NCBI GenBank assembly: GCA_005503065.1
Contig: SCOE01000025.1
Coordinates: 1-64,000 of the forward strand
Direction: 5' to 3'
Length of the DNA stretch: 64,000 bases
From: Comamonadaceae bacterium ALPHA2B
GTDB taxonomy: Bacteria; Pseudomonadota; Gammaproteobacteria; Burkholderiales; Burkholderiaceae_C
Position numbers and translations under genes: made by a program. Under the pieces are notes generated by a model that did not search any database, was not told the origin of the DNA, and saw only the letters and a list, made by a program, of their open reading frames with translations. Shown piece after piece: positions 1-16,380 of this stretch; within the stretch, counting starts at the first letter, position 1, and the number at the start of each line of letters is the position of its first letter.

Positions 1-56
1 CGCTGCAGAGGCAGACAGTGCTCGACGCGTGCGAACTGCTCGGGGGTGATCTCCAT
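1..56 (-). CDS. IS5-family transposase, N-terminal fragment
   Basis: The first 18 codons of a minus-strand reading frame that leaves the window (MEITPEQFARVEHCLPLQ) match, from memory, the N-terminus of a widespread IS5-family transposase group whose members begin MEITPEQ(F/Y)ARIEHCLP. Only the start lies here, so the DDE catalytic residues cannot be checked. It sits inside the element end described separately. No convincing ribosome binding site precedes the ATG, which is common for transposases. The identification rests on a short stretch and is moderately sure. Confidence 0.65.
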   Translation of the reverse strand, partial: MEITPEQFARVEHCLPLQ

Positions 57-108
57 GCCGAGCAGTATCAAGCATGATGGCGGGCATTGCAATTAGTGTT
101 AACAGGCC
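1..108 (-). mobile_element. End of an IS5-type insertion sequence
   Basis: The minus strand reads GGCCTGTTAACACTAATTGC from about 108 inward, which looks like a terminal inverted repeat of an IS5-family (IS427-like) element, followed after about 50 bases by the transposase start. The outer boundary abuts CTAG at 109-112, matching the YTAR-type target used by that subgroup. The insertion lies exactly where yejE breaks off, so the element is the likely cause of the truncation. The other end and the target duplication are outside the window. Confidence 0.65.
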
Positions 109-465
109 CTAGTTCAGCGTGCGCGGGCCATACGGGTTGGGCGCATAGACGGCCCAGTTGGCGCCCTCGGCGATGCGCTGGCGGATGAAGGGGTCGAGGT
201 AGTCGGCCGGCGTCTCGAAGTCGCCGCCGAAGGCCTTCTCGGAATAGTCCTTGAAAACCGGGAAGTAGGTCCGGCCCTCGTAGTGCACGACCAGCGGCTT
301 GTCGGTGGACAGCACCTCTGCGAAGAGGCTCAGCACCACCATGGCGACAAAGAGCACCAGGCTGTAGAAGCCCAGCCGGTTGCGGCGGAAGCGCCGCCAG
401 GCGCGGCGTCCGGGCGACAGGCGGGCTGGCGAGGCCGCGGGCAGCGGATGGACAGGCTCAGTCAA
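109..465 (-). pseudogene. yejE: yejE, ABC importer permease, truncated by IS insertion
   Basis: 118 residues corresponding to the N-terminus of YejE, the second permease of the YejABEF peptide (microcin C type) importer; full-length members are about 340 residues. Seen: an arginine-rich cytoplasmic start, one membrane segment at about residues 33-50, then the start of the large periplasmic loop (YAPNPYGPRTLN) before a TAG stop made at the insertion junction. All later membrane segments and the EAA loop that contacts the ATPase are lost. The start is a TTG overlapping the end of yejB by eight bases (TTTGACTGA), the only in-frame option that includes the conserved N-terminus. A functional permease is very unlikely. 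Confidence 0.85.
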
Positions 466-1492: not shown

Positions 1493-1499
1493 CGTGCGG

Positions 1500-3386
1500 C
1501 TACTTGTTCGCGGGCGATGCCCACCAGGTGGAGATGGCCCAGGCGTGCGCGTCGTAGTACGGCGGGATGGTCCTGGGCAGCACGAAAGGCGCGGGCCGGT
1601 AGCCGATCAGGAAGGCATCGCCGTAGTACTGGGGCACGCCGTAGTAGCCGTGCGAGAGCAGCCGGTCGAGCACGCGCATCGCCGTCACCAGCTCGGGCCG
1701 GGTGCGGGCCGACACCACCTTGCCGACGATCGCGTCCACGGCCGGATCGGCGATGCCCCAGATGTTGGACGAGCCGGTGGTCTCCGCGGCCTTGGAGCCG
1801 AAGCGCTCGAAGAGCTCGCTGCCCGGCGCATTGCTGCCCGGCAGGCGCACGGTCGTCATCTCGAAGTCGAAGTTGTCCATGCGCTGCTGCGCGAGCGAGA
1901 AGTCCACGCTGCGAAAGCTCATGTCGATGCCCAGCTTGCGCAGTGCGCCCTGCATCGGCGCCATCACCCGCAGGCTGGACGGCTGGTCGTTCAGCACCTC
2001 GATGGTGAAGGGCTCGCCCTTGGCGTTGCGCAGCGCGCCGTCGCGGTAGGTCCAGCCCGCTTCGGCCAGGAGCTTCTGCGCCTGGCGCAGGTTCTCGCGC
2101 AGGCTGTGCGGCGGCGTGGTCACGGGCGAGACGACGGCCGGGCCGAAGACCTCGGGCCGCAGCTTGTCGCGCAGCGGCTCCATCAGCGCCAGCTCGTCGG
2201 GCTTGGGCAGGCCTTCGGCGTGGAACTCGCTGTTCGGGAACCAGCCCTCGACCCGCTTGTACAGCCCGTAGAACATCTGCCGGTTGAGCCATTCGAAGTC
2301 GAAGGCCAGGCCAATGGCCTGGCGCACCCGCACGTCCTTGAACTTGTCCTTGCGCAGGTTGAAGACCCAGCCCTGGTAGTCGCCCGGGTTGCCGTTGGGA
2401 AAGGCGCGCTTGACCACCTCGCCGCGATCGAACACGCGGCCCGTGTACTGCCGGGCCCAGTTGCGGGAGATGAACTCGCGCATGAAGTCGTACTCGCCCG
2501 CCTTCAGGCCCTCGAAGCGGCTGGTCTCGTCGAGGTAGATCTTGTAGCTGACCCGGTCGAAGTTGAACTGGCCCCTGCGCACGGGCAGATCGGCGCCCCA
2601 GTACTTCGGATCGCGCACGTAGGTGATGTCGCGGCCCAGGCGACCGCTCGGCAGCTTGTATGGGCCCGAGGCGATGGGCAGCTCGGTCGTCACCTGGTCG
2701 AAGGGCTTGCCCTTGCCCCACGCGCGGCTGAACACCGGCATGCCGCCCACCACCAGCGGCAGCTCGGGGTTGGGCGTCGCGAAGTCGAAGCGCACCGTGC
2801 GCTCGGCGGTGGCGGTGGCCTTCTTCACCTCGGCGTAGATGGTGCGGAACTGCGGCGCCGCCTCCTTGCTCATGAGCGTGTCGAAGGAATGCACCACATC
2901 CGCCGCGAGCACCGGCGTGCCGTCGTTGAAACGGGCCTTGGGGTTGAGCCGGAAGGTCGCCGAGAGGCCGTCGGGTGCCGCTTCGACATCCTCGGCCAGC
3001 AGCCCGTAGGCGGTGGTCGGCTCCTCGCTGTTGCCGGTGAGCAGGCTCTCGAACATCAGCGTGCCCAGGCCCGCCGGCGCGGTGCCCTTGAGCGTGAAGG
3101 GATTGAACTTGTCGAAATTGGTGGGCCGCGTGGGCGGCACGAGCCGGATCTCGCCGCCCTTGGGCGCTTCGGGGTTCACGTAGTCGAAATGCGTGAAGCC
3201 CGGCGGGTACTTGATGTCGCCGAACTGGGCGTAGGCGTGCGCGGCCCATGCGCCGCCCGAGGAGACTGCGCAGAGCGCCAGCACCGAAAGCAGCCCAAGA
3301 GAACGCCGGGCCGCCCCAAGTTCTCTTGCTCCCCTCGGGGGACGGGCTGGGCTCTGCCCCGCCCTGGGGGCCGTCAATACACGCAT
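1500..3386 (-). CDS. yejA: YejA-type periplasmic peptide-binding protein
   Basis: Family 5 extracellular solute-binding protein of the YejA type, about 628 residues with the ATG at 3386 (another ATG lies nine codons upstream). The mature part begins near [16 protein letters not shown], the usual YejA start after signal cleavage; [21 protein letters not shown] and the C-terminal [15 protein letters not shown] are typical. The N-terminus is odd: about 25 extra residues rich in R, A and P precede the hydrophobic core [11 protein letters not shown], and they are encoded by a palindromic repeat-like stretch (3293-3380). The true start might therefore be different, or the leader was lengthened by the repeat. 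It is divergent from fabI and heads the yejABE operon. Confidence 0.9.
3293..3380. repeat. Interspersed GC-rich repeat at the yejA start
   Basis: The stretch holds GGGCCGCCCCAAG, then CCCCTCGGGGG and CCCTGGGGGCCGTC, a pattern I recall as a common interspersed repeat in Comamonadaceae genomes. It has short internal palindromes (CCCCTCGGGG). Only one copy is present here, so membership rests on memory. It overlaps the predicted N-terminal codons of yejA and the yejA-fabI promoter region. Confidence 0.45.
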
Positions 3387-3436
3387 GCGAGAATTCTGCC
3401 CCAGACTTTTCACGAGACACGTTGAAGGACATTCCC

Positions 3437-4228
3437 ATGGGTTTTCTCGCCGGCAAAAAGCTCCTGATCACCGGTGTGCTGAGCAACCGCTCCATCGCCT
3501 ACGGCATCGCCAAGGCCTGCCACCAGCAAGGCGCCGAGCTGGCCTTCAGCTACGTGGGAGAGCGCTTCAAGGACCGCATCACGGAGTTCGCCGCCGAGTT
3601 CGGCTCCAAGCTGGTGTTCGATTGCGACGTGGCCGACGATGCGCAGATCGACAAGCTCTTTGCCGACCTGTCGCAGACCTGGCCGAAGTTCGACGGCTTC
3701 GTGCACAGCATCGGCTTCGCGCCGCGCGAGGCGATCGCGGGCGACTTCCTCGACGGCCTCTCGCGCGAAGGCTTCAAGATCGCGCACGACATCAGCGCCT
3801 ACAGCTTTCCGGCCATGGCCAAGGCGGCCCTCCCCTACCTCAACGACAAGTCGGCCCTGCTCACGCTGACCTACCTGGGCGCCGTGCGCGCGCTGCCCAA
3901 CTACAACACCATGGGCCTGGCCAAGGCCAGCCTCGAAGCCTCGGTGCGCTACCTGGCCGGCTCGCTCGGCCCGCGCGGCATGCGCGTCAACGGCATCAGC
4001 GCCGGCCCGGTGAAGACGCTGGCCGCCAGCGGCATCAAGGGCTTCGGCAAGATCCTCTCGACGGTGGCCGAGGTCTCGCCCATCCGCCGCAACATCACGA
4101 TCGAGGACGTGGGCAACGTCGCCGCCTTCCTGCTGTCGGACCTCGCGGCAGGCGTGACGGCCGAGATCACCTACGTCGACGGCGGCTTCAGCAACGTCGT
4201 GGGCGGCATCGACGAGCCGGCCGCCTGA
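3437..4228 (+). CDS. fabI: FabI, enoyl-[acyl-carrier-protein] reductase (NADH)
   Basis: 263-residue enoyl-ACP reductase, which carries out the last reduction of each fatty acid elongation cycle in the cytosol. Length fits FabI (262 in E. coli). Seen: the atypical SDR nucleotide motif [13 protein letters not shown] near the N-terminus, [11 protein letters not shown], and the active-site arrangement Y-x6-K as [23 protein letters not shown], where the second tyrosine (in NYNTMG) and the lysine (MGLAK) are catalytic. C-terminal YVDGGFSNV is typical. The start is the ATG followed by [12 protein letters not shown]; reading frames extending further upstream add non-homologous sequence. It is divergent from yejA and followed by a palindromic repeat. 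Confidence 0.97.
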
Positions 4229-4247
4229 GCTGCAATCTTCCAAGCCG

Positions 4248-4300
4248 AAAGTGCCCGCAGCGCCCGTCCAGCGGGCGCCAGTAGCTATCGATTCCATAGC
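4248..4300 (+). repeat. Paired-palindrome repeat, family A, copy 1
   Basis: Contains GCGCCCG (4260-4266) facing CGGGCGC (4272-4278), then GCTAT (4284-4288) facing ATAGC (4296-4300), preceded by AAAGTG. The same two-hairpin order occurs at 31274-31328, 50478-50525, 52596-52652 and 62903-62957. This copy ends directly at the ATG of the DNA ligase gene, so it occupies the leader and the place where a ribosome binding site would be. Confidence 0.85.
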
Positions 4301-5143
4301 ATGACGATCGCGCGCCGTGCCCTGCTGATCGCCCCTGCCGCCCTGCTGGCGTGGCCCGCCGCGGGCTGGGCGGCCCCGGCCCTCATGCTGGCCGAGCGCT
4401 ACCGCGCCGGCCTGCCGCTGGCCGGATGGTGGGTCAGCGAGAAGTACGACGGCCTGCGCGGCTACTGGGACGGCAAGCGCCTGTGGACGCGCGGCGGCGA
4501 GCCGATCGCCGCGCCGGCGTGGTTCACCGCGCCGCTGCCGGCCACGCCGATGGATGGCGAACTGTGGGCCGGCCGGGGACGCTTCGAGCAGGCCGTGTCC
4601 ACCGTGCGCAACCGCACACCCGACGACAAGGCCTGGCGCGAAATCCGTTTCATGGTCTTCGACCTGCCCGCGCAGCCCGGCGACTTCGACGCCCGGCTGG
4701 CAGCGCTGCGCAAGCTGCTGCCGATCACCGACGCGCCCTGGGTGGTGCCCGTGGCGCAGGCGCGCGCCACCACGCATGCCGAACTCATGGCGCTGCTCGA
4801 CAAGACGATCCGTCTGGGCGGAGAAGGCCTGATGCTGCACCGGGGCGCTTCGCTCTACCGCGGCGAACGCAGTGGCGACCTGCTCAAGGTCAAGCCGCAT
4901 GACGATGCCGAGGCGCGGGTCGTCGCCCACCTGCCTGGCCAGGGCCGCCATGCGGGCCGCATGGGCGCGCTGCTGGTGCGCACGCCCGAGGGTGTGACCT
5001 TCCGCCTTGGCGGCGGCTTCACCGACGCGCAGCGCGCCGACCCGCCTCCCGTCGGCAGCACCGTGACCTACCGCTTCAACGGCACCAGCGCGGCCGGGGT
5101 GCCGCGCTTTGCGCGCTTCGTGCGCGTGCGGGACGACGGCTGA
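4301..5143 (+). CDS. ATP-dependent DNA ligase with signal peptide (LigE-like)
   Basis: 280 residues with the minimal nucleotidyltransferase plus OB-fold layout of small bacterial ATP-dependent DNA ligases. Seen: an N-terminal twin-arginine-containing hydrophobic leader (ARRALLIAPAALLAWPAAGWAAPA) suggesting export; motif I EKYDGLRG with the adenylated lysine at about residue 48; MDGELW; motif III FMVFDLP; motif IV EGLMLHR; motif V LLKVKPHDD; and a C-terminal OB-fold region ending VTYRFNGTSAAGVPRFARFVRVR. Such ligases (LigE/LigB-type) are thought to act on extracytoplasmic DNA, for instance in uptake or biofilm; the role here is inferred. The start codon directly abuts a palindromic repeat. The next gene follows after about 90 bases. 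Confidence 0.92.
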   Translation: MTIARRALLIAPAALLAWPAAGWAAPALMLAERYRAGLPLAGWWVSEKYDGLRGYWDGKRLWTRGGEPIAAPAWFTAPLPATPMDGELWAGRGRFEQAVSTVRNRTPDDKAWREIRFMVFDLPAQPGDFDARLAALRKLLPITDAPWVVPVAQARATTHAELMALLDKTIRLGGEGLMLHRGASLYRGERSGDLLKVKPHDDAEARVVAHLPGQGRHAGRMGALLVRTPEGVTFRLGGGFTDAQRADPPPVGSTVTYRFNGTSAAGVPRFARFVRVRDDG

Positions 5144-5232
5144 GCGCGCCGGACACGCCCGACTCGCAGGGGCAGGACGATCCGCCCCCGCCTCCGCCAT
5201 CGACCGCACGTGGCCCGCTGCGTTGGGCCTTC

Positions 5233-5571
5233 ATGGCGCTGGCCGTCCTGAGCCTGGCCCTCGCGGTCCTGGGCGTGCTGCTGCCGGGCCTGCCGACCAC
5301 GCCCTTCGTGCTGCTGGCCGCGTGGGCGGCGGCGCGCAGTTCGCCGCGCCTGGCGGCCTGGCTCGAATCGCATCGCCTTTTCGGCCCGCTGATCCGCGAC
5401 TGGCGCGCAGGCGGCCGCGTGAGCCGGCGCGCCAAGTGGAGCGCCGCGTTCGCCATGGCCGTGTGCGCCGGCATGCTGCTGTGGCTGGTGCGGCCGCGCG
5501 CCGCCGCGGCCGGCGGCATCGTGGTGATGGCCGCGGTGCTCGTGTGGCTGTGGCGCCGGCCCGAACCCTGA
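5233..5571 (+). CDS. DUF454 (YbaN-like) membrane protein
   Basis: 112-residue inner-membrane protein of the DUF454/YbaN family, whose function is not established. Seen: hydrophobic segment LAVLSLALAVLGVLLPGLPTTPF, where GVLLPGLPTTPF is the family signature; ARSSPRLAAWL; FGPLIRDWRAGG; and a C-terminal hydrophobic hairpin ending LVWLWRRPEP. The frame is open upstream to the ligase stop but has no ATG or GTG there, so the ATG at 5233 is the best start. It is probably co-transcribed with the ligase gene and is followed by a repeat of family B. Confidence 0.88.
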   Translation: MALAVLSLALAVLGVLLPGLPTTPFVLLAAWAAARSSPRLAAWLESHRLFGPLIRDWRAGGRVSRRAKWSAAFAMAVCAGMLLWLVRPRAAAAGGIVVMAAVLVWLWRRPEP

Positions 5572-5583
5572 AAGCCGCCTTTT

Positions 5584-5656
5584 CTGCAAAGTGCAATCGG
5601 CCTGCAGCGCCCGCCAGTCGGGCGCTGCAGCCGAATTCGTCACGAACGTGACGATC
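5584..5656 (+). repeat. Palindromic repeat, family B, copy 1
   Basis: Reads GTGCAATC-GGCCTGCAG then GCGCCCG...CGGGCGC, then TCGTCACG-AA-CGTGACGA, a near-perfect palindrome at 5638-5655. The stretch at 34555-34627 shares the same blocks in the same order (GTGCAATCcGGCTGCAGC, ACTCGTaAC, ACGTGACGATC). It lies between two convergent genes (DUF454 and phnX), where its hairpins could end transcription from both sides. Confidence 0.75.
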
Positions 5657-6475
5657 TCAAGGCAAGGGCTTCTCGCCGGCCGCCAGGCGGGCGTCGATCG
5701 CGTCCAGCACCGGCAGCAGGTCGGCCACGCTGTCGATCACGTAGTGCGCACCGGACGCCTTCAGTTCGGCCGTGGCGCGCTGGCGGACGACCTCCTGCGC
5801 ATCGGCATCCAGCGCCTGCCACTCGGCCAGCGTCAGCCCGGCGGCGTTGCCGCTGATGGCCAGGCCCACCGTCCAGGTGCCGGCGTTCAGGCCCTCCTGC
5901 ACGCCGACGCCGGTGTCGTCCACCTTCACGACCGTGCCCGCGGGCCAGACGCCGAGGTCGGCGAAGGTGCGGTACATCATGAGCGGCGATGGGCGCCCGG
6001 CAGCCAGGTCGCCGGCGCACACGAGGTTGTCGGGCACGTAGCCGCCTTGGGCCGCGATGGCCGTGACGACCTCCATGATCGGCCGGTTGTAGCCCGTGGT
6101 GGATCCGACCTTGAGCCCGCGCGCACGCACGGCGGCCACGGTGTCGAGCGCACCGGGGATGAAGTCGGCAAAGTCGGGCACCACCGCCGCGTTCATGGGT
6201 GTGAAGACCTCGTAGAGGTGGTCGATGTCGGCATCGGTGAAGGGGCGGCCGTGTTTCGCCTCCCATTGCGCGGCGATGCGCGGCAGCCGGCTCAGGGCCT
6301 GGATGTGGTCCCACTTGGCCATGCCCATGGGGCCGCGCGCCTCGGCGATGGACAGGTCGATGCCGAAGCGCTCGAACAGGCGCACGAAGGCGCCCATCGG
6401 TGCGCAGGAGCCGAAGTCGATGATGGTGCCGGCCCAGTCGAAGACGACGGCCTGGAGCTTGTCGGGAGTGTTCAT
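5657..6475 (-). CDS. phnX: PhnX, phosphonoacetaldehyde hydrolase (phosphonatase)
   Basis: 272-residue HAD-superfamily enzyme that splits phosphonoacetaldehyde into acetaldehyde and phosphate. Seen: nucleophile motif VVFDWAGTIIDFGS with Asp13; the cap-domain lysine that forms the Schiff base in MGMAKWDHI (Lys54, matching Lys53 of the Bacillus cereus enzyme); GSTTGYNRPIM; and the acidic Mg motif VKVDDTGVGVQEG. Length and motif spacing fit the family. The start is the ATG at 6475; the reading frame runs on upstream through the oxidase gene only as an out-of-frame extension. It lies 26 bases after the FAD oxidase gene and closes the minus-strand phosphonate operon. No PhnW transaminase, the usual source of its substrate, is in the window. 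Confidence 0.95.
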   Translation of the reverse strand: MNTPDKLQAVVFDWAGTIIDFGSCAPMGAFVRLFERFGIDLSIAEARGPMGMAKWDHIQALSRLPRIAAQWEAKHGRPFTDADIDHLYEVFTPMNAAVVPDFADFIPGALDTVAAVRARGLKVGSTTGYNRPIMEVVTAIAAQGGYVPDNLVCAGDLAAGRPSPLMMYRTFADLGVWPAGTVVKVDDTGVGVQEGLNAGTWTVGLAISGNAAGLTLAEWQALDADAQEVVRQRATAELKASGAHYVIDSVADLLPVLDAIDARLAAGEKPLP

Positions 6476-6501
6476 GGAAGGAATCGGTACGGGGATGGCG
6501 C

Positions 6502-7638
6502 TCACCAGGCCGCAAAAACGTCTTCGGCGATGCCGAAGGCGGTGCTCGCGCCGGTGCCGCTGGTGACGAGCACCAGGCGCGTGGCGTCGTCCGGTGCGTC
6601 GATGAGGCAGTCCGTCACCGGTGAGGAGGGGTAGGTGCCGACCCAGCGCTCGGTCACCGTGGCCTCGGTGAGATTCAGGGTCTCGTGCAGGTGCCGCAGG
6701 ATCAGCGCGTCCACCCGCTGGTCGGCGAAGGGTTCGAGCACCGGGCCATAGTGGTGCGAGTCGCCGACGACCAGCGTGCCGTCGGCGCTCTGCACCACGA
6801 TCAGGTGGATGCCGTGGGCCAGGGATTCGCCCTCCTCCGCCTCGATCTGCGTGCGCAGCACCTGCGCCGCCGGCAGCTTGCTGTAGCCGTGGTAGCGCAC
6901 CAGGCTGAGGTCGGCCATGACCGAGCCGGGCAGACGGAAGCCCGGCTGCGGCCGCACGCGCATCATGTGCAGCTGGCACAGCCGCAGGACGTGCGGCGAC
7001 AGGCGCTCGGCGAACAGGCCGTTGAGCTCGCTGTTCGTGCACACGGCCACCCGGTCGGCATGCAGCACGGCGCGCGAGGTGCGCACGCGCGGGGTGGCCA
7101 CCTCGAGCACCGCCTCGCCGAAGCGAAAGTGCACGCCCAGCGCATCCGACAGCCAGCGCGCGAGCTGGCCGATGGCGGTGCGCGACTCGACGCGCATCTC
7201 GTGCGGGCTGTAGAGCACGCCCTGGGCCGGGCCGTGCGGCCCTTCTAGGCGCAGCGCGGGTGCACGGTGCGCGGCCTCGCCCGCGGGCAGCAGCTCGCAG
7301 CCGACGGCCATCTCGGTGGCCATGAACTCCTCCAGCACCTTCAGCGACTGCGCACGGAAGGCGGTGAGGTACAGCCCGTGGTGCACGGCCGGGATGCCGG
7401 CCTGCGGCGCCACCGTGCCCCAGACCTCGCGCGCGCGCCGCGCCCGCCGCCACGTGTCGCCGGCGCCCTGGCCGGTGACGGTGATGAAGCCGAAGTTGCG
7501 GATCGACGCGCCCACGCAGGCGGCATCCTTGTCGACCACGCACACCCGCAGCCCGCGCCGCGCGGCCGTGTAGGCATGCGCCAGGCCGACGATGCCGGCG
7601 CCGACGACGATGAGATCAAAGTGGTCGTTGGAGGTCAT
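6502..7638 (-). CDS. PbfD-type FAD-dependent oxidoreductase of AEP catabolism
   Basis: 378-residue DAO-type flavoenzyme. Seen: N-terminal FAD-binding motif DLIVVGAGIVGLAHAY, the acidic end of the second strand (VVDKD), the family stretch ASIRNFGFITVTGQ, and a C-terminal TSGTGASTAFGIAED. This matches the phosphonate-cluster family described by TIGR03364, one member of which is reported (PbfD) to oxidise AEP derivatives such as N-methyl-AEP to phosphonoacetaldehyde. Placed directly before phnX, it is the likely supplier of the PhnX substrate in a cluster without PhnW; this last step is inference. The reported substrates of relatives differ, so the real substrate here is open. Confidence 0.88.
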   Translation of the reverse strand: MTSNDHFDLIVVGAGIVGLAHAYTAARRGLRVCVVDKDAACVGASIRNFGFITVTGQGAGDTWRRARRAREVWGTVAPQAGIPAVHHGLYLTAFRAQSLKVLEEFMATEMAVGCELLPAGEAAHRAPALRLEGPHGPAQGVLYSPHEMRVESRTAIGQLARWLSDALGVHFRFGEAVLEVATPRVRTSRAVLHADRVAVCTNSELNGLFAERLSPHVLRLCQLHMMRVRPQPGFRLPGSVMADLSLVRYHGYSKLPAAQVLRTQIEAEEGESLAHGIHLIVVQSADGTLVVGDSHHYGPVLEPFADQRVDALILRHLHETLNLTEATVTERWVGTYPSSPVTDCLIDAPDDATRLVLVTSGTGASTAFGIAEDVFAAW

Positions 7639-7657
7639 GGAAGCTCAGTGAAATCGG

Positions 7658-7792
7658 GATCGGGCAGCCGAACGCAGAAGGAAGACAAAAGTGACGCAGA
7701 GGGCGCAGGGAGGAACATCATTCTTTCTTGCTTCTGCGCCCTTCGCGAATCCTTTGCGTCCTCTGCGTTCGGCTGTCCGTACCCGTATTCGG
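7658..7792. repeat. MITE-like inverted repeat (CGCAGAGG family), copy 1
   Basis: About 135 bases with terminal inverted repeats: GGGCAGCCGAACGCAGA on the left and TCTGCGTTCGGCTGTCC on the right. The interior carries short near-repeats of CGCAGAGGGCGCAG and TTTGCGTCCTCTGCG. A second element with the same ends lies at 51526-51694. This copy fills the gap between the permease gene and the FAD oxidase gene of the phosphonate operon, so any transcript running through it would form a long hairpin. Confidence 0.8.
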
Positions 7793-7794
7793 CT

Positions 7795-9497
<1,703 letters not shown>

Positions 9498-9501
<4 letters not shown>

Positions 9502-10652
9502 TCCTGGTCTGCCGGAAAGACGCGCAGCCGGTCCGTGCGCAGCGCGAAGCGCAGACGGCCGCCCTCTCGCACCGAGAACTCGTCCATCTGGTTGAGCGAG
9601 AACTGCAGCTGAAGGGACTGGCCGCCCAAGGCCTCGACCTCCACCTGCGCCAGGCAGTTGCCGCCGAGGAATTCGACGTGGCGCACCGTGCCTTCGCAGC
9701 GGCCGGGATGGTCTTCTGGCACGTCGATCATCAGCCGGTCCTCGGGACGCAGGTAGAGCATCACGGGGCGGCCGGGGCGGAAGTCGGCGCCCTGCCCCTC
9801 CTCGCAGCGCAACCGAAGTTCGCCGCAGCGGAACCGGTGATCGCCTTCGGCCACGGCCTGCAGGCGGTTCACCTTGCCGACGAAGTCGGCCACGAAGGGC
9901 GAGGCCGGCGTACGGTACACCTCGCGCGGCGTGCCGACCTGCTCGATCACGCCGTGGTTCATGACCACGATGCGGTCGGCGACGGACAGGGCCTCCTCTT
10001 GGTCGTGCGTGACCATGATGGTGGTCACGCCCAGTTGGCGCTGCAGCGCGCGGATCTCGTTGCGCAGGTGCACGCGCACGATGGCGTCGAGGGCCGACAG
10101 CGGCTCGTCCAGCAGCAGCAGGCCCGGCGAGGTGGCCAGGGCGCGCGCGAGCGCGATGCGCTGCTGCTGGCCGCCCGACATCTGCGCCGGGTACTTGGCG
10201 CCGCTGCCCGGCAGGCCCACGAGCGCCAGCAGTTCGTCGACCCGGGCCGTCACCTGTGCGCGCGGCTGCTTGCGGTTGACCAGCCCGTAGGCCACGTTCT
10301 CGGCGATGCTCAGGTTGGGGAACAGCGCATAGGACTGGAACACGATGCCGTAGTCGCGCTGCGCGGGCGGCAGCACAGACACGTCGCGCCCGGCCTGCAC
10401 GATGCGCCCGGCCGTCTGCGTCTCCAGGCCCGCGATGATCCGCAGCAGCGTGGTCTTGCCGCAACCCGAGGGACCGAGAAAGCAGACGAACTCGCCACGC
10501 GCGATGGCGAGATCGATCTGCGAGAGCGCGGTGAAGCTGCCGAAGCGCTTGCTCACGCCCAGCAGGCGCAGGTAACTCTCATCCTGCGCCGCAAGGCCGG
10601 TGGGCGGGGAGACAGCGGCGTCCATCGCATCGTGGCCGCGCCGGGCCCACAT
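9498..10652 (-). CDS. phnT: 2-aminoethylphosphonate ABC importer ATPase (PhnT type)
   Basis: About 384-residue ATPase powering AEP uptake. Seen: Walker A GPSGCGKTT, Q-loop FQSYALFPNLS, signature MSGGQQQRIALARAL, Walker B LLLLDEPLSALD, switch HDQEEA, then a C-terminal TOBE-like regulatory region (PVMLYLRPEDRL, AQVEVEALGG). The start at 10652 is chosen because it forms TAATG with the stop of the binding-protein gene and has AGGA just before it; an internal ATG at 10625 is the alternative and would remove nine residues. The stop overlaps the permease start. Family assignment as phosphonate rather than putrescine or iron transport rests on the neighbours. Confidence 0.92.
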
Positions 10653-11686
10653 TACTTCCTGGCCTCGCTCTTGGCGTCGTAGCGCTTCGACCATTCGGCG
10701 AGGATGCGCTCGCGATTCACGGCCGACTGCTCGAAGTTCATCTTGATCAGGCGCGACTCGTAGTCGGCGGGGATGTTCGCCAGCTTCGGCGCGACACCCG
10801 GCTGCGCGGTGATGGCGAAGTTCTTGCCGTACAGCAGCATGGCGTCCTTGGACGAGGCCCAGTCGGCCAGCTTCTTCGCCGCGTCCAGCTTCTTGGTGCC
10901 CTTGTAGATGGCGAAGCCCTCCAGGTCCCAGCCCAGGCCTTCCTTGGGGAAGACCAGTTCGATCGGCGCGCCCTTGGCCTTGTTGGTGTGGCCGCGGTAC
11001 TCGAAGGAGATCCCGGCCACGTACTCGCCGGCCGCCGCCATGTTGCAGGGCTTGGAGCCGGAATGCGTGTACTGCCCGATGTTCTCGTGCAGCGCATCCA
11101 TGTACTTCCAGCCGCCGCCCTTGCCGTTGTCGTCGCCCCAGAGCTGCAGCCAGGCCGCGACGTCGAAGTAGCCCGTGCCCGAGGACGCCGGGTTGGGCAT
11201 CACGACCTGGCCCTTGAACTCGGGCTTGAGCAGGTCCTTCCAGGCGGTGGGCACGGGGATGTTCTTCTTCTTGGCCTCGACGGTGTTGAAGCACACCACG
11301 GCGCCGAACACGTCCATGCCGAACCAGGCCGGCGGCGACTTCTTGTCGCGGTACTGCGGCATGATCGCGTCGAGGTTCAGCGGCGCATAGGGCTCGAGCA
11401 TGCCGTTCTTGTCGAACAGGGCCAGGCTCGAGGCGGCCACGCCCCAGATCACATCGGCCTGCGGATTCGCCTTCTCGGCCAGCAGCTTGGCGGTGATGAC
11501 GCCAGTCGAATCGCGCACCCACTTGATGTCGATCGTCGGATTCACCTTGTTGAAAGCCTCCTGGTAGGCCTTGAGCTGGTCGGTCTCCAGCGCGGTATAG
11601 ACCGTCAGCTGCGTCTTCTGCGCCAGCGCCGACGCTGCGCAAGCCAGGCCGATGAACGCGGCCACGATGTGTTTGGCGTACTGCAT
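10652..11686 (-). CDS. phnS: 2-aminoethylphosphonate-binding periplasmic protein
   Basis: 344-residue periplasmic binding protein. Seen: signal peptide at residues 1-22 (HIVAAFIGLACAASALAQ) and then KTQLTVYTALETDQLKAYQEAF, the typical opening of the iron/AEP family of binding proteins (TIGR03261-like, AepX). The ATG at 11686 is chosen because it has GAGGAG seven bases upstream and begins the signal peptide; a longer frame to 11752 adds a leader of unlikely character. It is the first gene of the minus-strand operon, divergent from the GntR gene with about 160 bases between. It delivers substrate to the fused permease. Confidence 0.92.
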   Translation of the reverse strand: MQYAKHIVAAFIGLACAASALAQKTQLTVYTALETDQLKAYQEAFNKVNPTIDIKWVRDSTGVITAKLLAEKANPQADVIWGVAASSLALFDKNGMLEPYAPLNLDAIMPQYRDKKSPPAWFGMDVFGAVVCFNTVEAKKKNIPVPTAWKDLLKPEFKGQVVMPNPASSGTGYFDVAAWLQLWGDDNGKGGGWKYMDALHENIGQYTHSGSKPCNMAAAGEYVAGISFEYRGHTNKAKGAPIELVFPKEGLGWDLEGFAIYKGTKKLDAAKKLADWASSKDAMLLYGKNFAITAQPGVAPKLANIPADYESRLIKMNFEQSAVNRERILAEWSKRYDAKSEARK

Positions 11687-11790
11687 GAGCAACTCCTCAT
11701 CGAAAAGTGAAAGGCGAATGTGCGGGCGGGACAAGACATCCTCGTGACACATGCGCCAAGCAAAATCGGGGCCCGCTCCGACTTATCGTC

Positions 11791-11823
11791 AATTGTCTTT
11801 TGCAGATCGTAGACAATCTGCAA
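11791..11823. promoter_or_regulatory. Candidate operator for the phosphonate GntR regulator
   Basis: In the divergent promoter region an inverted repeat TTGCAGA (11800-11806) faces TCTGCAA (11817-11823), and ATTGTC (11792-11797) faces GACAAT (11812-11817). Overlapping palindromes of this size between a FadR-type regulator and its target operon are the usual place for the operator. No binding data are available; this is inferred from position and symmetry. Confidence 0.5.
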
Positions 11824-11844
11824 TCCGGCCCGTAGCATCTCGCC

Positions 11845-12579
11845 ATGCCTGTCAAGAAGATCTCGCCCCACCCTGTCATCGCACAGCTTCAGTGCAATTC
11901 GCTGGCAAACGTGGTGCAGGCAGAGATCGAACGCATGATCCTGGACGGCGAACTGGCTTCGGGCGCCAAGCTCACCGAGTCCACCCTCGCCGACCAGTTG
12001 GGCGTGTCGCGGGGCCCGGTGCGCGAGGCCTTCCGCATGCTCGAGGAAGCCGGGCTGGTGCGCACCGAGAAGAACCGGGGCGTGTTCGTGCGCGACGTGC
12101 CGATCGACGAAGCCCTCGAGATCTTCGAGGTGCGTGCGGCGATGGACCTGTATGTCGGCCGCAAGGTGGCGCTGTCTGCATCGGCGGCCCAGGTGCGCGA
12201 GTTGCGCCAGTTGGTCGATGCGATGGATCAGGCCGTCAAGGCCGGCAACGCGCGCGACTACCACCGCTTCAACCTCTCGTTCCATGACCGGCTGCTCGAA
12301 CTGGCCGGCAATGCCAAGCTGCTGGCCACCTACCGCAAGCTGGTCAACGAGCTGTCGCTGTTCCGGCGCCAGAACCTCACCGGCGAATCGATGGCGGTGT
12401 ACTCGCGCGAACACCGGCAGATCGTGAAGGCCATTGCCGCTGGCGACGCCGACGCCGCCGGCCAGGCGATGTTCCAGCATGTGATGAACAGCCGGGAGCG
12501 CACGCTGCGCAACCACGCGGCGCGGCAGTCGGACGTGCCCGGCGCGGCCGGGGCCGTGGCGCACGCGGTCGCGGCCTGA
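11845..12579 (+). CDS. GntR/FadR-type regulator (FCD domain) of the phosphonate cluster
   Basis: 244-residue regulator. Seen: N-terminal winged helix-turn-helix (residues about 20-85) with IERMILDGELASGAKLTESTLADQLGVSRGPVREAFRMLEEAGLV, split here as the GntR hallmark LGVSRGPVREA; then an all-helical FCD ligand domain with the metal-type residues D-x3-H in FHDRLLELAG and HRQIVKAIAAGD. Divergent from the AEP importer operon and upstream of the HD oxygenase, it most likely represses both; the ligand is probably AEP or a breakdown product. The C-terminal 20 residues are alanine-rich and look unstructured. Confidence 0.92.
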   Translation: MPVKKISPHPVIAQLQCNSLANVVQAEIERMILDGELASGAKLTESTLADQLGVSRGPVREAFRMLEEAGLVRTEKNRGVFVRDVPIDEALEIFEVRAAMDLYVGRKVALSASAAQVRELRQLVDAMDQAVKAGNARDYHRFNLSFHDRLLELAGNAKLLATYRKLVNELSLFRRQNLTGESMAVYSREHRQIVKAIAAGDADAAGQAMFQHVMNSRERTLRNHAARQSDVPGAAGAVAHAVAA

Positions 12580-12592
12580 GGCGGGCGGTGCC

Positions 12593-13150
12593 ATGGCCCT
12601 GACCCTGGACGACATCGCCGCGCTGTTCGTGCGCAAGGGATCGGCGCAATACAGCGGCGAGCCGGTCACCCAGCTCGAACACGCCCTTCAATGCGCGCTG
12701 CACGCCGAACTGGCCGGCGCGGACGACGAGCTGGTCACGGCAGCCCTGCTGCACGACCTCGGCCACCTGCTCAACGACCAGGGCGAATCGCCGACCCTGC
12801 GCGGCATCGACGACCTGCACCAGTTCTACGCCCTGCCCTTCCTGCGCGGGCTGTTCTCCGACCGGGTGCTCGATGCCATCCGCTGGCACGTCGATGCCAA
12901 GCGCTATCTCTGTGCATCGCGGCCGGACTACGAGGCCTCGCTCTCGGAGGATTCGAGGCGGAGCCTGGCCTTGCAGGGCGGCGTCTTCTCCCCGGCCGAA
13001 GCACGCGCCTTCCTCGACCGGCCCCATGCGCGGGATGCCGTGCGCGTGCGGCTGTGGGACGACGCGGCCAAGCAGGCCGGCCTGCCCACGCCGCCGCTGG
13101 CGCACTTCCTGGCACGGGCCCGCCGCTGCGGCACGGACGCACCGGCGTGA
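12593..13150 (+). CDS. PhnZ-like HD-domain phosphonate oxygenase
   Basis: 185-residue HD-domain protein of the family associated with phosphonate operons (TIGR03276). PhnZ is a diiron oxygenase cleaving the C-P bond of 1-hydroxy-AEP to glycine and phosphate. Residues that match its known metal and substrate ligands can be seen at a nearly constant offset: Tyr20 and Glu23 (SAQYSGEPV), His30 (LEHALQ), His54-Asp55 (LLHDLGH), His58, His76 (DDLHQF), His99 (IRWHVD) and Asp157 (LWDDAA). This supports a real oxygenase and not merely an HD relative. The partner hydroxylase PhnY is absent from the window, so the hydroxylated substrate must come from elsewhere or the substrate differs. The stop overlaps the next gene (GTGA). 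Confidence 0.87.
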   Translation: MALTLDDIAALFVRKGSAQYSGEPVTQLEHALQCALHAELAGADDELVTAALLHDLGHLLNDQGESPTLRGIDDLHQFYALPFLRGLFSDRVLDAIRWHVDAKRYLCASRPDYEASLSEDSRRSLALQGGVFSPAEARAFLDRPHARDAVRVRLWDDAAKQAGLPTPPLAHFLARARRCGTDAPA

Positions 13151-14016
13151 CGCTGACCGGACCGGTCGCGCTCGCGGTGCTCTTCGGCGCGCTGCTCCAT
13201 GCGAGCTGGAATGCGCTCATCAAGTCGGCCGCGGACAAGGAGCTGGACACCGCGCTGATCCACAGCATCGGCTTCTTCCTCGCCTTTCCGCTCCTGCTGT
13301 TCACCGGGTTGCCGGCGGCGGCCTCCTGGCCCTACCTGCTGGCTTCGATGATGGTGCACATCGGCTACTACGTTGCGCTGGCCGGCGCCTACCGGCACGG
13401 CGAGCTCGGGTTGACCTATCCGGTGATGCGCGGCTGCGCGCCGCTGCTGGTCGCGTTGAGCAGCCATGCGCTGATCGGTGAATCCATTTCGCCGACAGCC
13501 TGGGCGGGCGTGGCCGCCGTGTGCGCCGGCGTGGTGCTGCTGGGCCTGTCGCCCGCCAGCCTGCACGCGGCCGAGGGCCAGCGCGGCAAGGCGCTGCGCT
13601 TCGCGCTGTGCAACGCGGCCATCATCGCGGTCTACACCGTGGTCGATGGCCTGGGTGTGCGCGCCTCGGGCGATGCCGCGGCGTATGTGGCGGCGCTTTT
13701 CCTTTTCGACGGCGTGCCCTACCTGCTGCTGGTGCTCTGGCGCCGCGGACCGCAGGGGCGCCCCGCCGCGTGGCGCTACATGGCGAGCCGCTGGCGCATC
13801 GCGTGCCTCGGCACCGCCGCCTCGCTGGGCAGCTACGGCATCGCGCTGTGGGCCATGACGCGTGCCCCGGTGGCCGTGGTGGCCGCGCTGCGCGAGACCT
13901 CGGTGCTCTTCGCGGCGCTCATCGGCACGCTGTGGCTCAAGGAACGCTTCGGCATGCAGCGCGCACTGGGCACCGGCGTAGTGGTCGCCGGCGTCATGGC
14001 GCTGCGCTTCGGCTGA
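13147..14016 (+). CDS. EamA/DMT-type membrane protein of the phosphonate cluster
   Basis: 289-residue integral membrane protein with about ten hydrophobic segments in two EamA-like halves. Seen: the typical opening ALLHASWNALIKS, then YHG-like loop AYRHGELGLTYPVMRGCAPLLVA and a C-terminal half with APVAVVAALRETSVLFAALIGTLWLKERFG. It resembles the putative membrane protein family linked to phosphonate use (TIGR03340). The GTG at 13147 overlaps the stop of the HD oxygenase gene and is chosen for that coupling. A role as exporter or second transporter for a pathway product is possible; the substrate is unknown. Confidence 0.85.
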   Translation: MTLTGPVALAVLFGALLHASWNALIKSAADKELDTALIHSIGFFLAFPLLLFTGLPAAASWPYLLASMMVHIGYYVALAGAYRHGELGLTYPVMRGCAPLLVALSSHALIGESISPTAWAGVAAVCAGVVLLGLSPASLHAAEGQRGKALRFALCNAAIIAVYTVVDGLGVRASGDAAAYVAALFLFDGVPYLLLVLWRRGPQGRPAAWRYMASRWRIACLGTAASLGSYGIALWAMTRAPVAVVAALRETSVLFAALIGTLWLKERFGMQRALGTGVVVAGVMALRFG

Positions 14017-14025
14017 GGCCGGCGT

Positions 14026-16380
14026 TCAGACCGTCCGGCCGAAGGGGCCGTCGGCACCGACCTGCACGAGGTTGTCCTCGCTGGCCAGCGGCTGGGGCGT
14101 CCGCTCGCCCTGGCCGGTGGCCACGCAGTCGGCGTAGTAGCGCACGTTGCCGTCCACGTCCTCAAGCTCGACCAGGCCATGGATGTCGGTCTCGAAGCCC
14201 GGGCATTTGGTGTTGAACTCGCGCGAGAACTTGAGGTAGTCGACGATCTTCTTGTTGAACACCTCGCCCGGGATCAGCAGCGGGATGCCCGGGGGATACG
14301 GCGTGATGAGGCTGGTGGTGATGCGGCCTTCGAGGTGGTCGATCTCGACGCGCTCGGTCTTGCGGTGGGCGATGTGCGCATACGCGTCGCTGGGCTTCAT
14401 TGCGGGCGTGAGGTCCGACAGGTACATCTCGGTGGTCAGCCGGGCGATGTCGTACTCGGCGTACATCTTGTGCACGTGCTGGCACAGGTCGCGCAGACCC
14501 ATCCGCTCGTAGCGCTTGTGCTGCTGGCAGAACTCCGGGAGGATGCGCCACATGGGCTGGTTGCGCTCGTAGTCGTCCTTGAACTGCTGCAAAGCCGTGA
14601 GCAGCGTGTTCCAGCGGCCCTTGGTGATGCCGATGGTGAACATGATGAAGAAGCTGTAGAGGCCGGTCTTCTCCACGATCACGCCATGCTCGGCCAGGAA
14701 CTTGGTGACGATGCTTGCGGGAATGCCGCTCTCCGCGAAGTTGCCGTCCATGTCCAGACCGGGCGTCACGATGGTCGACTTGATCGGGTCGAGCATGTTG
14801 AAGCCGTCCGCCAGTGCGCCGAAGCCGTGCCACTTCGCGTCGCGGTCGTCGCCCTTGATGACCCAGTCGTCGGCCCGGCCGATGCCCTCCTCGGCGAGCT
14901 TCTCGGGCCCCCAGACCTTGAACCACCAGTCGTTCTCGCCGAACTCGGCCTCGACCTGGCGCATCGCGCGACGGAAGTCGAGCGCCTCGAGGATGCTCTC
15001 CTCGACCAGCGCCGTGCCGCCGGGCGGTTCCATCATCGCGGCCGCCACGTCGCAGCTGGCGATGATCGCGTACTGCGGCGAGGTGCTGGTGTGCATCAGG
15101 AAGGCCTCGTTGAAGAGGTGCCGGTCCAGCTTGCGGTGCTGCGAATCCTGGACCAGCACGTGGCTGGCCTGGCTGATGCCTGCCAGCAGCTTGTGTGTGG
15201 ACTGGGTCGAGAACACCAGCGTTTCCTGCGGCCGCGCCCGCTTCTTGCCCATGGCGTGGTAAGGCCCGTAGAAGGGATGGAAGGCCGCGTGCGGCAGCCA
15301 GGCCTCGTCGAAGTGCAGCGTGTCGACGTAGCCGTCCACCGCCTTCTTGATCGTCTCGGTGTTGTAGACCACGCCGTCGTAGGTCGACTGCGTGAGCGTG
15401 AGGATGCGCGGCTTGACCGTGTCCGCGTCCACACCCTTCAGGAGCGGATTCGCGCGGATCTTCGCCTTGATCGACTCCACGTCGAACTCCTGGCGCGGGA
15501 TGGGGCCGATGATGCCGAAATGGTTGCGCGTGGGCTTGAGGAAGACCGGGATCGCGCCGGTCATGATGATGGCGTGCAGGTTGGATTTGTGGCAGTTGCG
15601 GTCCACGACCACCACGTCGCCCGGCGCCACCGTGTGATGCCACACCATCTTGTTGCTGGTGCTGGTGCCGTTGGTGACGAAGAAGCAGTGGTCGGCGTTG
15701 AAGATGCGCGCGGCATTGCGCTCGCTCTCGGCCACCGGGCCGGTGTGGTCGAGCAGTTGCCCGAGCTCCTCCACCGCATTGCACACGTCGGCACGCAGCA
15801 TGTTCTCGCCGAAGAACTGGTGGAACATCTGGCCCACGGGGCTTTTCAGGAACGCCACGCCGCCCGAATGGCCCGGGCAATGCCAGGAATAGGAGCCGTC
15901 CTCCGCGTAGTCGAGCAGCGCCTTGAAGAACGGCGGCTGCACACCCTCGAGGTAGCTCTTGGCCTCGCGGATGATGTGGCGGGCCACGAATTCCGGCGTG
16001 TCCTCGAACATGTGGATGAAGCCGTGCAGCTCGCGCAGGATATCGTTGGGCAGATGGCGCGAGGTCTTCGTCTCGCCGTAGATGTAGATCGGGACGTCGG
16101 TGTTCTTGCGGCGCACCTCGTCGATGAAGGTGCGCAGGTTGAGCACGGCCGGGTCCATGTCGGGGCCGCCGCTGAACTCCTCGTCGTCGATCGACAGGAT
16201 GAAGGCGCTGGCCCGGCTCTGCTGCTGGGCGAACTGCGACAGGTCACCGTAGCTGGTCACGCCGAGCACCTCGAACCCTTCCGACTCGATGGCCTGCGCC
16301 AGGGCACGGATGCCCAGGCCCGAGGTGTTCTCGGAGCGGAAGTCCTCGTCGATGATGACGATGGGGAAGCGGAATTTCAT
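14026..16380 (-). CDS. Arginine/lysine/ornithine decarboxylase (PLP, wing-domain type)
   Basis: 784-residue decarboxylase of the large bacterial basic amino acid family (AdiA/CadA/SpeC fold III group). Seen: N-terminal receiver-like wing domain with FPIVIIDEDF (residues 1-145); PGHSGGVAFLKSPVG; TNGTSTSNK and CHKS; LHFDEAW with the PLP-contacting aspartate; and FSTQSTHKLLAG, whose Lys397 should form the Schiff base (Lys386 in AdiA). A C-terminal domain carries PPGIPLLIPGE. It uses one proton per turnover, so acid resistance or polyamine supply is the expected role. Whether arginine, lysine or ornithine is used cannot be decided by eye. Convergent with the EamA gene (9 bases) and divergent from nfeD. 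Confidence 0.95.
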   Translation of the reverse strand: MKFRFPIVIIDEDFRSENTSGLGIRALAQAIESEGFEVLGVTSYGDLSQFAQQQSRASAFILSIDDEEFSGGPDMDPAVLNLRTFIDEVRRKNTDVPIYIYGETKTSRHLPNDILRELHGFIHMFEDTPEFVARHIIREAKSYLEGVQPPFFKALLDYAEDGSYSWHCPGHSGGVAFLKSPVGQMFHQFFGENMLRADVCNAVEELGQLLDHTGPVAESERNAARIFNADHCFFVTNGTSTSNKMVWHHTVAPGDVVVVDRNCHKSNLHAIIMTGAIPVFLKPTRNHFGIIGPIPRQEFDVESIKAKIRANPLLKGVDADTVKPRILTLTQSTYDGVVYNTETIKKAVDGYVDTLHFDEAWLPHAAFHPFYGPYHAMGKKRARPQETLVFSTQSTHKLLAGISQASHVLVQDSQHRKLDRHLFNEAFLMHTSTSPQYAIIASCDVAAAMMEPPGGTALVEESILEALDFRRAMRQVEAEFGENDWWFKVWGPEKLAEEGIGRADDWVIKGDDRDAKWHGFGALADGFNMLDPIKSTIVTPGLDMDGNFAESGIPASIVTKFLAEHGVIVEKTGLYSFFIMFTIGITKGRWNTLLTALQQFKDDYERNQPMWRILPEFCQQHKRYERMGLRDLCQHVHKMYAEYDIARLTTEMYLSDLTPAMKPSDAYAHIAHRKTERVEIDHLEGRITTSLITPYPPGIPLLIPGEVFNKKIVDYLKFSREFNTKCPGFETDIHGLVELEDVDGNVRYYADCVATGQGERTPQPLASEDNLVQVGADGPFGRTV

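What the first reader, a model, noticed from the sequence alone, without database searches (positions are those of the whole stretch)
5657..14016. Phosphonate cluster pairs PhnX with a PbfD-type oxidase but has no PhnW or PhnY
The cluster has an AEP importer (fused permease), a PbfD-type FAD oxidase, PhnX, a PhnZ-like oxygenase, regulator and an EamA protein. The usual PhnW transaminase and PhnY hydroxylase are missing. The set could be a hybrid route in which the oxidase feeds PhnX from AEP or N-methyl-AEP, while the HD enzyme handles hydroxylated phosphonates, giving two ways from different substrates to phosphate. I know no description of exactly this gene set.
Basis: partly seen in the sequence, partly recalled or inferred. 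Interest (0 to 1): 0.75.

Follow-up and report, generated by a model that had tools for sequence, protein, structure and literature searches.

The report
Known phosphonate-eating gene cluster, oxidase version
This is a set of bacterial genes for extracting phosphate from natural phosphonates, in which an oxidase replaces the usual first enzyme; the set recurs in related bacteria and is largely described already, but the substrate of one enzyme is still untested.

Summary
Eight genes at 5657-14016 match phosphonate families; seven score over the curated cut-off (PhnX, TIGR03364 oxidase HpnW/PbfD, fused permease, ATPase, binding protein, GntR-type PhnR, HD oxygenase), the EamA protein does not. 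In the 6.0 Mb genome no PhnW, PbfA or C-P lyase PhnJ was found, and the one PhyH-family protein matches no curated phosphonate hydroxylase above cut-off. The claim that this set is undescribed is wrong: PbfD with PhnX and no PhnW was characterised in 2023 (PMC10590968), HpnW, PhnX and PhnHD without PhnW in the operon were reported in Achromobacter in 2024 (PMC11203657), and PhnZ as an alternative to PbfA was noted in 2021 (PMC8154272). Best reading: import, PbfD oxidation of AEP or N-methyl-AEP to phosphonoacetaldehyde, then PhnX; PhnHD separately cleaves an imported 1-hydroxy-aminophosphonate. I add a palindrome between the divergent arms, shared by phnX-type and phnA-type clusters (56 of 62 distinct loci); PhnW/HpnW complementarity by genus; and a same-genus locus lacking hpnW-phnX but keeping importer, PhnR and PhnHD. 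New member of a known kind; PhnHD's substrate remains open.

The parts
5657..6475 (-). phnX, phosphonoacetaldehyde hydrolase (272 aa)
   Evidence: TIGR01422 341 bits vs cut-off 220; aligns over 10-273 with 3iru and over 9-264 with PhnX structure 2iof
6502..7638 (-). hpnW/pbfD, FAD-dependent amine oxidase of TIGR03364 (378 aa)
   Evidence: TIGR03364 421 bits vs 285; DAO domain PF01266; lies in an 88-row clade (support 0.93) with PhnW at 4 rows, 3 distinct loci
7795..9501 (-). phnU2, fused two-domain ABC permease for AEP
   Evidence: TIGR03262 778 bits vs 593; two BPD_transp_1 stretches
9498..10625 (-). phnT2, ABC ATPase (start 10625 or 10652)
   Evidence: TIGR03265 512 bits vs 458
10652..11752 (-). 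phnS2, periplasmic AEP-binding protein
   Evidence: TIGR03261 497 bits vs 393
11802..11821 (.). palindrome GCAGATCGTAGACAATCTGC, predicted PhnR operator between the divergent arms
   Evidence: only site in 64 kb at up to 3 mismatches, 0 in 100 shuffles (the motif was derived from these loci, so this is descriptive); motif in the gap of 56 of 62 distinct related loci
11845..12579 (+). phnR, GntR/FCD regulator
   Evidence: TIGR03338 phnR_burk 296 bits vs 271.5; FCD and GntR domains
12593..13150 (+). phnHD (phnZ-like), HD-domain diiron oxygenase by sequence (185 aa)
   Evidence: TIGR03276 239 bits vs 215; PhnZ 4mlm E 4.4e-35 and TmpB 6npa E 2.5e-34; metal motif and YxxE loop conserved
13147..14016 (+). 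EamA-family membrane protein, phosphonate-associated; overlaps phnHD by 4 bases
   Evidence: TIGR03340 224 bits, below cut-off 288; PF00892

Best explanation
A two-armed phosphonate-scavenging module under one regulator. PhnS2T2U2 imports AEP-type aminophosphonates (inferred from family). HpnW, a PbfD-type oxidase, deaminates AEP and N-methyl-AEP with oxygen to phosphonoacetaldehyde, replacing the missing transaminase PhnW (shown for two other PbfD enzymes, inferred here). PhnX hydrolyses phosphonoacetaldehyde to acetaldehyde and phosphate (shown for homologues). PhnHD, a PhnZ/TmpB-type diiron oxygenase, works independently on an imported (R)-1-hydroxy-aminophosphonate, most likely (R)-HAEP, giving phosphate and glycine. 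It is the oxygen-dependent alternative to the lyase PbfA, and needs no PhnY* because the hydroxylated substrate comes from outside (inferred). PhnR probably binds the palindrome at 11802-11821 and controls both arms (inferred).
For: Family matches. No PhnW, PbfA or PhnJ found in the genome. Among 43 PhnX genomes of a 397-genome phylum sample, HpnW only 15, PhnW only 18, both 9, neither 1; by genus 13, 12, 3 and 0 of 28, Fisher p 1.5e-5. HpnW lies within 12 kb of PhnX in 12 of the 15 genomes without PhnW but in 1 of the 9 with PhnW (recounted). Of 29 PhnX loci among 141 PhnHD neighbourhoods, 22 have HpnW only, 4 both, 3 PhnW only, 0 neither. PbfD1 and PbfD2 make phosphonoacetaldehyde from M1AEP and AEP (PMC10590968, passages). 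PhnHD keeps H...HD...H...H...D and the YxxE loop that contacts the substrate amine (loop and motif from PMC8177086 passages). PMC8154272 survey: clusters with both pbfA and phnZ = 0 (passages). Here PbfA is in 1 of 22 PhnX genomes with PhnHD and 9 of 21 without. A same-genus locus keeps importer, PhnR, PhnHD and EamA without HpnW and PhnX. Shared palindrome.
Against: No experiment in this organism. No PbfD2 sequence was available, so membership of the PbfD2 subgroup was not tested. In 11 of 24 genomes with both, HpnW is not within 12 kb of PhnX. The PbfA-PhnHD exclusion is not significant by genus (p 0.33), and in G1060 an HD protein of 104.6 bits sits beside PbfA. PhnHD's substrate could instead be hydroxymethylphosphonate or an N-methylated HAEP; its best named-enzyme model is TmpB (158 bits, below the 300 cut-off). 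EamA is unexplained.
Confidence: 0.72

Rival explanations
1. HpnW and PhnHD act in series: HpnW deaminates hydroxy-AEP to 1-hydroxy-2-oxoethylphosphonate, which PhnHD cleaves to glyoxylate and phosphate; PhnX serves only AEP.
For: PhnHD tracks HpnW among 43 PhnX genomes: 19 of 24 with HpnW, 3 of 19 without (p 4.8e-5). In 5 genomes of one genus (G873, G938, G970, G994, G1107) HpnW and PhnHD lie next to each other, away from PhnX. The TIGR03364 description names HAEP as a possible substrate (quoted in PMC10590968).
Against: By genus p is 0.054. PhnHD also sits in 39 PhnA/PbfB/PbfC loci, 38 of them without HpnW in the stretch read, and in 3 PhnX loci with PhnW and no HpnW. The same-genus locus L074 has PhnHD but not HpnW. 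The passages I read on PbfD1 and PbfD2 report activity on M1AEP, AEP and (PbfD1) M2AEP, although (R)-HAEP and its N-methyl forms were synthesised for the specificity tests; I saw no explicit HAEP result.
Confidence: 0.08
2. PhnHD is not a HAEP oxygenase here but acts on another hydroxyphosphonate (hydroxymethylphosphonate, N-methyl- or trimethyl-HAEP).
For: NCBIfam scores rank TmpB (158) above the Gimesia HMP oxygenase (133), both far below their cut-offs of 300. PhnHD also occurs beside C-P lyase or PhnD-type importer genes (32 of 141 loci). PhnHD lineages follow gene context (8 label changes against a shuffled mean of 63), so specificity may differ between contexts.
Against: Association with AEP importers and PhnX/PhnA. 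The YxxE glutamate that contacts the amine is conserved in all 29 PhnX-context and all 39 PhnA-context proteins. Published pbfA/phnZ exclusion.
Confidence: 0.2
3. PhnHD is an HD phosphohydrolase accessory, as older automatic annotation had it.
For: HD domain PF01966; PMC11203657 says its PhnHD was first annotated as phosphohydrolase and notes that some phosphohydrolases share the bimetallic motif (passages).
Against: The H...HD...H...H...D motif and the YxxE loop of PhnZ and TmpB are present; the only solved structures matched are PhnZ and TmpB (4 distinct sequences).
Confidence: 0.03

Closest known systems
Achromobacter insolitus / A. aegrifaciens phosphonatase cluster hpnW-phnSXUT + phnHD (PMC11203657)
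   Same: HpnW (TIGR03364) instead of PhnW in the operon, PhnX, PhnSTU-type importer, nearby PhnHD (TIGR03276)
   Different: Achromobacter has a LysR regulator and a phnW elsewhere in the chromosome; here the regulator is GntR/FCD, no PhnW was found, and an EamA gene follows phnHD
PbfD2 + PhnX pathway (PMC10590968)
   Same: FAD oxidase plus PhnX with no PhnW found in the genome; Rhodoferax koreense is named there as having pbfD-phnX
   Different: A PhnZ-like oxygenase is part of the present set; the tested PbfD2 is from M. fucicola and its sequence was not compared here
phnWX or phnWAY clusters with phnZ (PMC8154272, Table 1)
   Same: PhnZ-like gene beside a hydrolytic AEP pathway, without PbfA
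   Different: Here PhnW is replaced by the oxidase
PhnY*/PhnZ and TmpA/TmpB oxidative pathways
   Same: HD oxygenase with the same metal motif and YxxE loop
   Different: No partner hydroxylase in the cluster and none matching a curated model above cut-off in the genome

Membership tests
PbfD / TIGR03364 oxidase | curated model score over cut-off | tested here: met
   421 vs 285 bits
PbfD / TIGR03364 oxidase | oxidation of M1AEP (and AEP) to phosphonoacetaldehyde | not testable with these tools
   needs purified enzyme
PbfD2 subgroup | phylogenetic placement with M. fucicola PbfD2, cluster without phnW | tested here: inconclusive
PhnX | TIGR01422 equivalog score | tested here: met
   341 vs 220 bits
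PhnZ/TmpB diiron oxygenases (TIGR03276 clade) | H...HD...H...H...D ligands and YxxE loop | tested here: met
   same residues as PhnZ and TmpB at these columns (motif, loop, Tyr24 and Glu27; the other residue numbers recalled)
PhnY*/PhnZ or TmpA/TmpB pathway | partner hydroxylase (PhnY*/TmpA) | tested here: not met
   none in cluster; the sole PhyH protein of the genome matches no curated phosphonate hydroxylase above cut-off. So it is not filed as a PhnY*Z or TmpAB pathway, though the enzyme looks PhnZ-like
PhnZ/TmpB diiron oxygenases (TIGR03276 clade) | oxidative cleavage of a 1-hydroxyphosphonate | not testable with these tools
   needs purified enzyme
AEP importer PhnS2T2U2 | curated model scores of all three parts | tested here: met
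   TIGR03261, TIGR03265, TIGR03262 all over cut-off
PhnR (phnR_burk) | TIGR03338 score and phosphonate neighbourhood | tested here: met
   296 vs 271.5 bits

The most novel reading that the evidence does not exclude
HpnW and PhnHD form one biochemical unit, a flavin oxidase handing a hydroxy-aldehyde phosphonate to a diiron oxygenase, so that hydroxy-AEP becomes glyoxylate and phosphate without PhnX, PbfA or PhnY*. This would be an unrecognised C-P cleavage route hidden inside phosphonatase clusters.
Probability: 0.07. Interest if true: 0.6.

Novelty: new member of a known kind. Interest (0 to 1): 0.3.

Why it matters
The cluster is a PhnW-less AEP pathway in a genome where no PhnW, PbfA or C-P lyase was found, so it makes a good model for testing how oxidase-based pathways work in vivo. 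It focuses an open question that PMC11203657 also names: what PhnHD does where its partner hydroxylase is missing. The palindrome shared by phnX-type and phnA-type clusters predicts that one regulator switches two different degradation chemistries on the same signal.

Tried and rejected
Considered and rejected: (1) PhnW or PbfA elsewhere in the genome: not found. (2) C-P lyase as a second route: PhnJ not found in G000. (3) PhnY* elsewhere: one PhyH-family protein on contig C18, beside a gene that I take by eye for a TctC-like binding protein, not a match to a curated phosphonate hydroxylase above cut-off. (4) HpnW genomes without PhnX as proof of an HpnW-PhnHD pathway: 6 of 30 HpnW genomes lack PhnX (taking both searches to have drawn the same 397 genomes). 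Two of the 6 have a PhnHD match, one over cut-off. Of the 6, four loci of 9 kb were read: PhnA, a dehydrogenase and PbfA (L182); PhnW (L183); a PhnX-like TIGR03351 hydrolase at 209 bits, just under its 219 cut-off (L181); HpnW with no labelled partner (L180). Not proof. (5) PhnHD as one uniform group: the low-scoring HD proteins beside cytochrome b561-like genes (18 loci) have Gln for PhnZ His62 in 17 of 18 and were kept apart. (6) Structure prediction was not run: PhnZ and TmpB are already close by sequence.

The 23 PhnHD rows without a recognised context were left out of the tree. 7 of the 80 named loci repeat stretches of L040-L179, so counts must not be added and the 112-row tree repeats some sequences; the 66 loci are 62 distinct ones. 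Gene contexts are limited to about 20 kb per locus and by contig ends; phmmer thresholds were mine. PhnW counts use over-cut-off matches; G949 and G1085 have weaker ones.
Full report
What is there. Eight genes occupy 5657-14016 in two divergent arms. The minus-strand arm runs phnS2, phnT2, phnU2 (fused permease), hpnW, phnX. The plus-strand arm runs phnR, phnHD, EamA, with phnHD and EamA overlapping by four bases. Seven of the eight score over the curated NCBIfam cut-off for a phosphonate-associated family; EamA is below it. The window is bases 1-64,000 of contig C17 of a 6.0 Mb assembly. The best HpnW match among named genomes is a 98% identical MAG called only Pseudomonadota; the next 14 are Pseudacidovorax, Rhodoferax, Variovorax, Acidovorax and others at 78-83%.

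The rest of the genome. PhnW: no match at E<=1e-40. PbfA: no match at E<=1e-100. PhnJ of C-P lyase: no match at E<=1e-30. PhnHD, PhnX and HpnW: one copy each at the thresholds used. One PhyH-family protein lies on contig C18. Against NCBIfam it reached only 46 bits to a methylphosphonate hydroxylase model whose cut-off is 500, and nothing else at E<=1e-10, so no PhnY* or TmpA is indicated. PhnA and phosphonoacetaldehyde dehydrogenase were not searched genome-wide.

Is the oxidase a PhnW substitute? In the family survey, TIGR03276 (PhnHD) matched in 134 of 397 genomes at E<=1e-20, 86 over cut-off. I fetched 140 of the 145 non-own places and added the window: 141 neighbourhoods. PhnX is in 29 of these: 22 with HpnW only, 4 with HpnW and PhnW, 3 with PhnW only, none with neither. 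In a phylum sample, PhnX was in 43 of 397 genomes. Of these 43, 15 have HpnW only, 18 PhnW only, 9 both and 1 (G198) neither. Counted by genus the complementarity holds (13, 12, 3 and 0 of 28 genera; Fisher p 1.5e-5). HpnW lies within 12 kb of PhnX in 12 of the 15 genomes without PhnW, but in 1 of the 9 with PhnW (recounted from the list). Of the 80 named HpnW loci kept, 66 have PhnX, 2 have PhnW, 35 have PhnHD and none has PbfA at my threshold. In a 112-row HpnW tree the enzymes of the phnW-bearing loci L265, L183, L096 and L106 lie outside an 88-row clade (support 0.93) that holds the window's HpnW; in that clade 4 rows have PhnW (L052, L248, and L056 and L219, which are copies of one locus). 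The next larger grouping has support 0.28 only.

The HD protein. Its solved relatives in the PDB search are PhnZ (4mlm, E 4.4e-35) and TmpB (6npa, E 2.5e-34). On an alignment it has the residues of PhnZ at Tyr24, Glu27, His34, His58, Asp59, His80, His104 and Asp161. These are invariant in all 29 PhnX-context and all 39 PhnA-context relatives. PMC8177086 (passages) gives H...HD...H...H...D as the diiron motif and YxxE (Tyr24, Glu27) as the loop whose glutamate contacts the substrate amine. An oxygenase on an amino-bearing hydroxyphosphonate is therefore the likeliest function. Within 141 loci PhnHD also occurs with PhnA, PbfB or PbfC (39 loci) and with C-P lyase or PhnD genes (32 loci). It is thus an accessory of several kinds of phosphonate cluster, not special to the PhnX-HpnW type. 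In a tree of 118 context-labelled PhnHD proteins plus PhnZ and TmpB, lineages follow context (8 changes; shuffled mean 63.1), and the window's PhnHD sits in an 18-row clade (96/80) of PhnX loci that includes the three with PhnW and no HpnW.

PhnHD and PbfA. In the phylum sample PbfA is over cut-off in 10 of 43 PhnX genomes. One of these (G1060) has a PhnHD match, of 104.6 bits, next to PbfA. 21 of the other 33 have PhnHD (p 0.0039; by genus p 0.33, not significant). In plasmid records, 14 with PbfA (E<=1e-110) and 27 with PhnHD (E<=1e-15) have no accession in common; other replicons of the same strains were not looked at. PMC8154272 had already reported that phnZ occurs in 15 of 1,186 phnWX and 24 of 75 phnWAY clusters, never together with pbfA, and reads this as separate processing of (R)-HAEP (passages). 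My counts agree and add nothing stronger.

PhnHD and HpnW. PhnHD is in 19 of 24 HpnW genomes and 3 of 19 others (p 4.8e-5; by genus p 0.054). In five genomes of one genus the two genes are adjacent and far from PhnX. This is the basis of the novel case. Against it: PhnHD with PhnX and PhnW but no HpnW in 3 loci, and the locus L074 of a same-genus genome. There FabI, DUF454, importer, PhnR, PhnHD, EamA and the decarboxylase match the window at 91-99% identity, but HpnW and PhnX give no match at E<=1e-5. That genome carries a second cluster with PhnW, PhnA, PbfC and PhnHD (L063). It shows that importer plus PhnHD can persist without HpnW and PhnX at the locus; PhnX elsewhere in that genome was not searched.

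Regulation. The 92-base gap between phnS2 and phnR holds GCAGATCGTAGACAATCTGC at 11802-11821. It is the only match to GCAGATTGTNNACAATCTGC at up to three mismatches in the window; 100 shuffles gave none. The pattern was derived from these same loci, so this describes rather than tests it. With up to two mismatches, GATTGTNNACAATC lies in the phnS2/phnR gap (with 250 bases either side) of 32 of 32 PhnX loci, 26 of 32 PhnA loci and 2 of 2 others; 61 of all 68 matches in about 1.25 Mb are there. Copies removed, that is 28 of 28, 26 of 32 and 2 of 2, or 56 of 62. Five of the six exceptions (L062, L063, L069, L070, L079; four of them PbfC loci) have AACTGTTGACAGTT, the sixth (L093) has neither. A shared operator implies that PhnR answers the same signal whichever degradation chemistry follows. 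A search for the model name and motif strings returned no paper. A broader one on GntR, regulon and aminoethylphosphonate found 1,238 papers, of which I saw 12 titles and abstract starts and nothing evidently on this regulator. Absence in print is therefore not shown.

What is known. PMC10590968 (passages): PbfD1 and PbfD2 oxidise M1AEP and AEP to phosphonoacetaldehyde; pbfD genes outside PbfD1 are most commonly with phnX alone; a PbfD2+PhnX pathway is named as one of four; Rhodoferax koreense has pbfD-phnX. PMC11203657 (discussion part 1 of 2 and passages): Achromobacter hpnW-phnSXUT with phnHD and lysR, phnW elsewhere in the chromosome; O. anthropi GPK 3 with a similar cluster and no phnW (stated there as data in preparation); PhnHD function left open, with HAEP favoured by modelling. 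PMC11356716 (passages): Delftia with phnX and apparently no phnW. An annotated plasmid of Comamonas endophytica has an EamA gene, the HD oxygenase, TIGR03364 oxidase and phnX side by side, without the importer and phnR in the stretch shown. The finding is therefore a new member of a known kind.

Verdict. Observation confirmed, mechanism plausible and mostly supported by inference, novelty claim not supported. What remains interesting is the untested substrate of PhnHD and the regulator-operator prediction.

Noticed in passing
window 11802-11821; also phnS2/phnR gaps of related loci: Conserved palindrome GATTGTNNACAATC between phnS2 and phnR, in phnX-type and phnA-type clusters alike (56 of 62 distinct loci); predicted PhnR operator.
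   Followed up: yes
L074 (G660:C144) 1-13300: Same-genus locus syntenic with the window in which hpnW and phnX are missing while importer, phnR, phnHD and EamA remain; the genome has a second cluster with phnW, phnA, pbfC and phnHD (L063).
   Followed up: partly
G1060:C7:143808-145660: An HD protein with a weak TIGR03276 score (104.6 bits) lies 45 bases from PbfA on the opposite strand, a possible exception to the published pbfA/phnZ exclusion.
   Followed up: no
L145, L153, L154, L156, L160, L165, L167-L172, L174-L179 (18 loci): A low-scoring TIGR03276-like HD group beside cytochrome b561-like genes (b561 and YceI-like neighbours named by eye; the one b561-like protein scanned matched no NCBIfam family), with PhnZ His62 replaced by Gln in 17 of 18; function unknown.
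   Followed up: partly
L085, L088, L098, L103 and others (23 loci): PhnHD in the same stretch as C-P lyase genes (PhnD, PhnJ, PhnM), suggesting it widens broad-specificity phosphonate clusters too.
   Followed up: no
L212, L214, L220 (Comamonas testosteroni JL40, a Delftia acidovorans MAG, an Acidovorax MAG): Importer-HpnW operons with no PhnX found in the stretch held; whether PhnX lies elsewhere was not checked.
   Followed up: no
G873:C41, G938:C22, G970:C1, G994:C1, G1107:C36: HpnW and PhnHD as an adjacent co-directional gene pair far from the PhnX gene.
   Followed up: partly
window 14026-16380: An Orn/Lys/Arg decarboxylase follows the cluster on the minus strand; no phosphonate link seen.
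   Followed up: no
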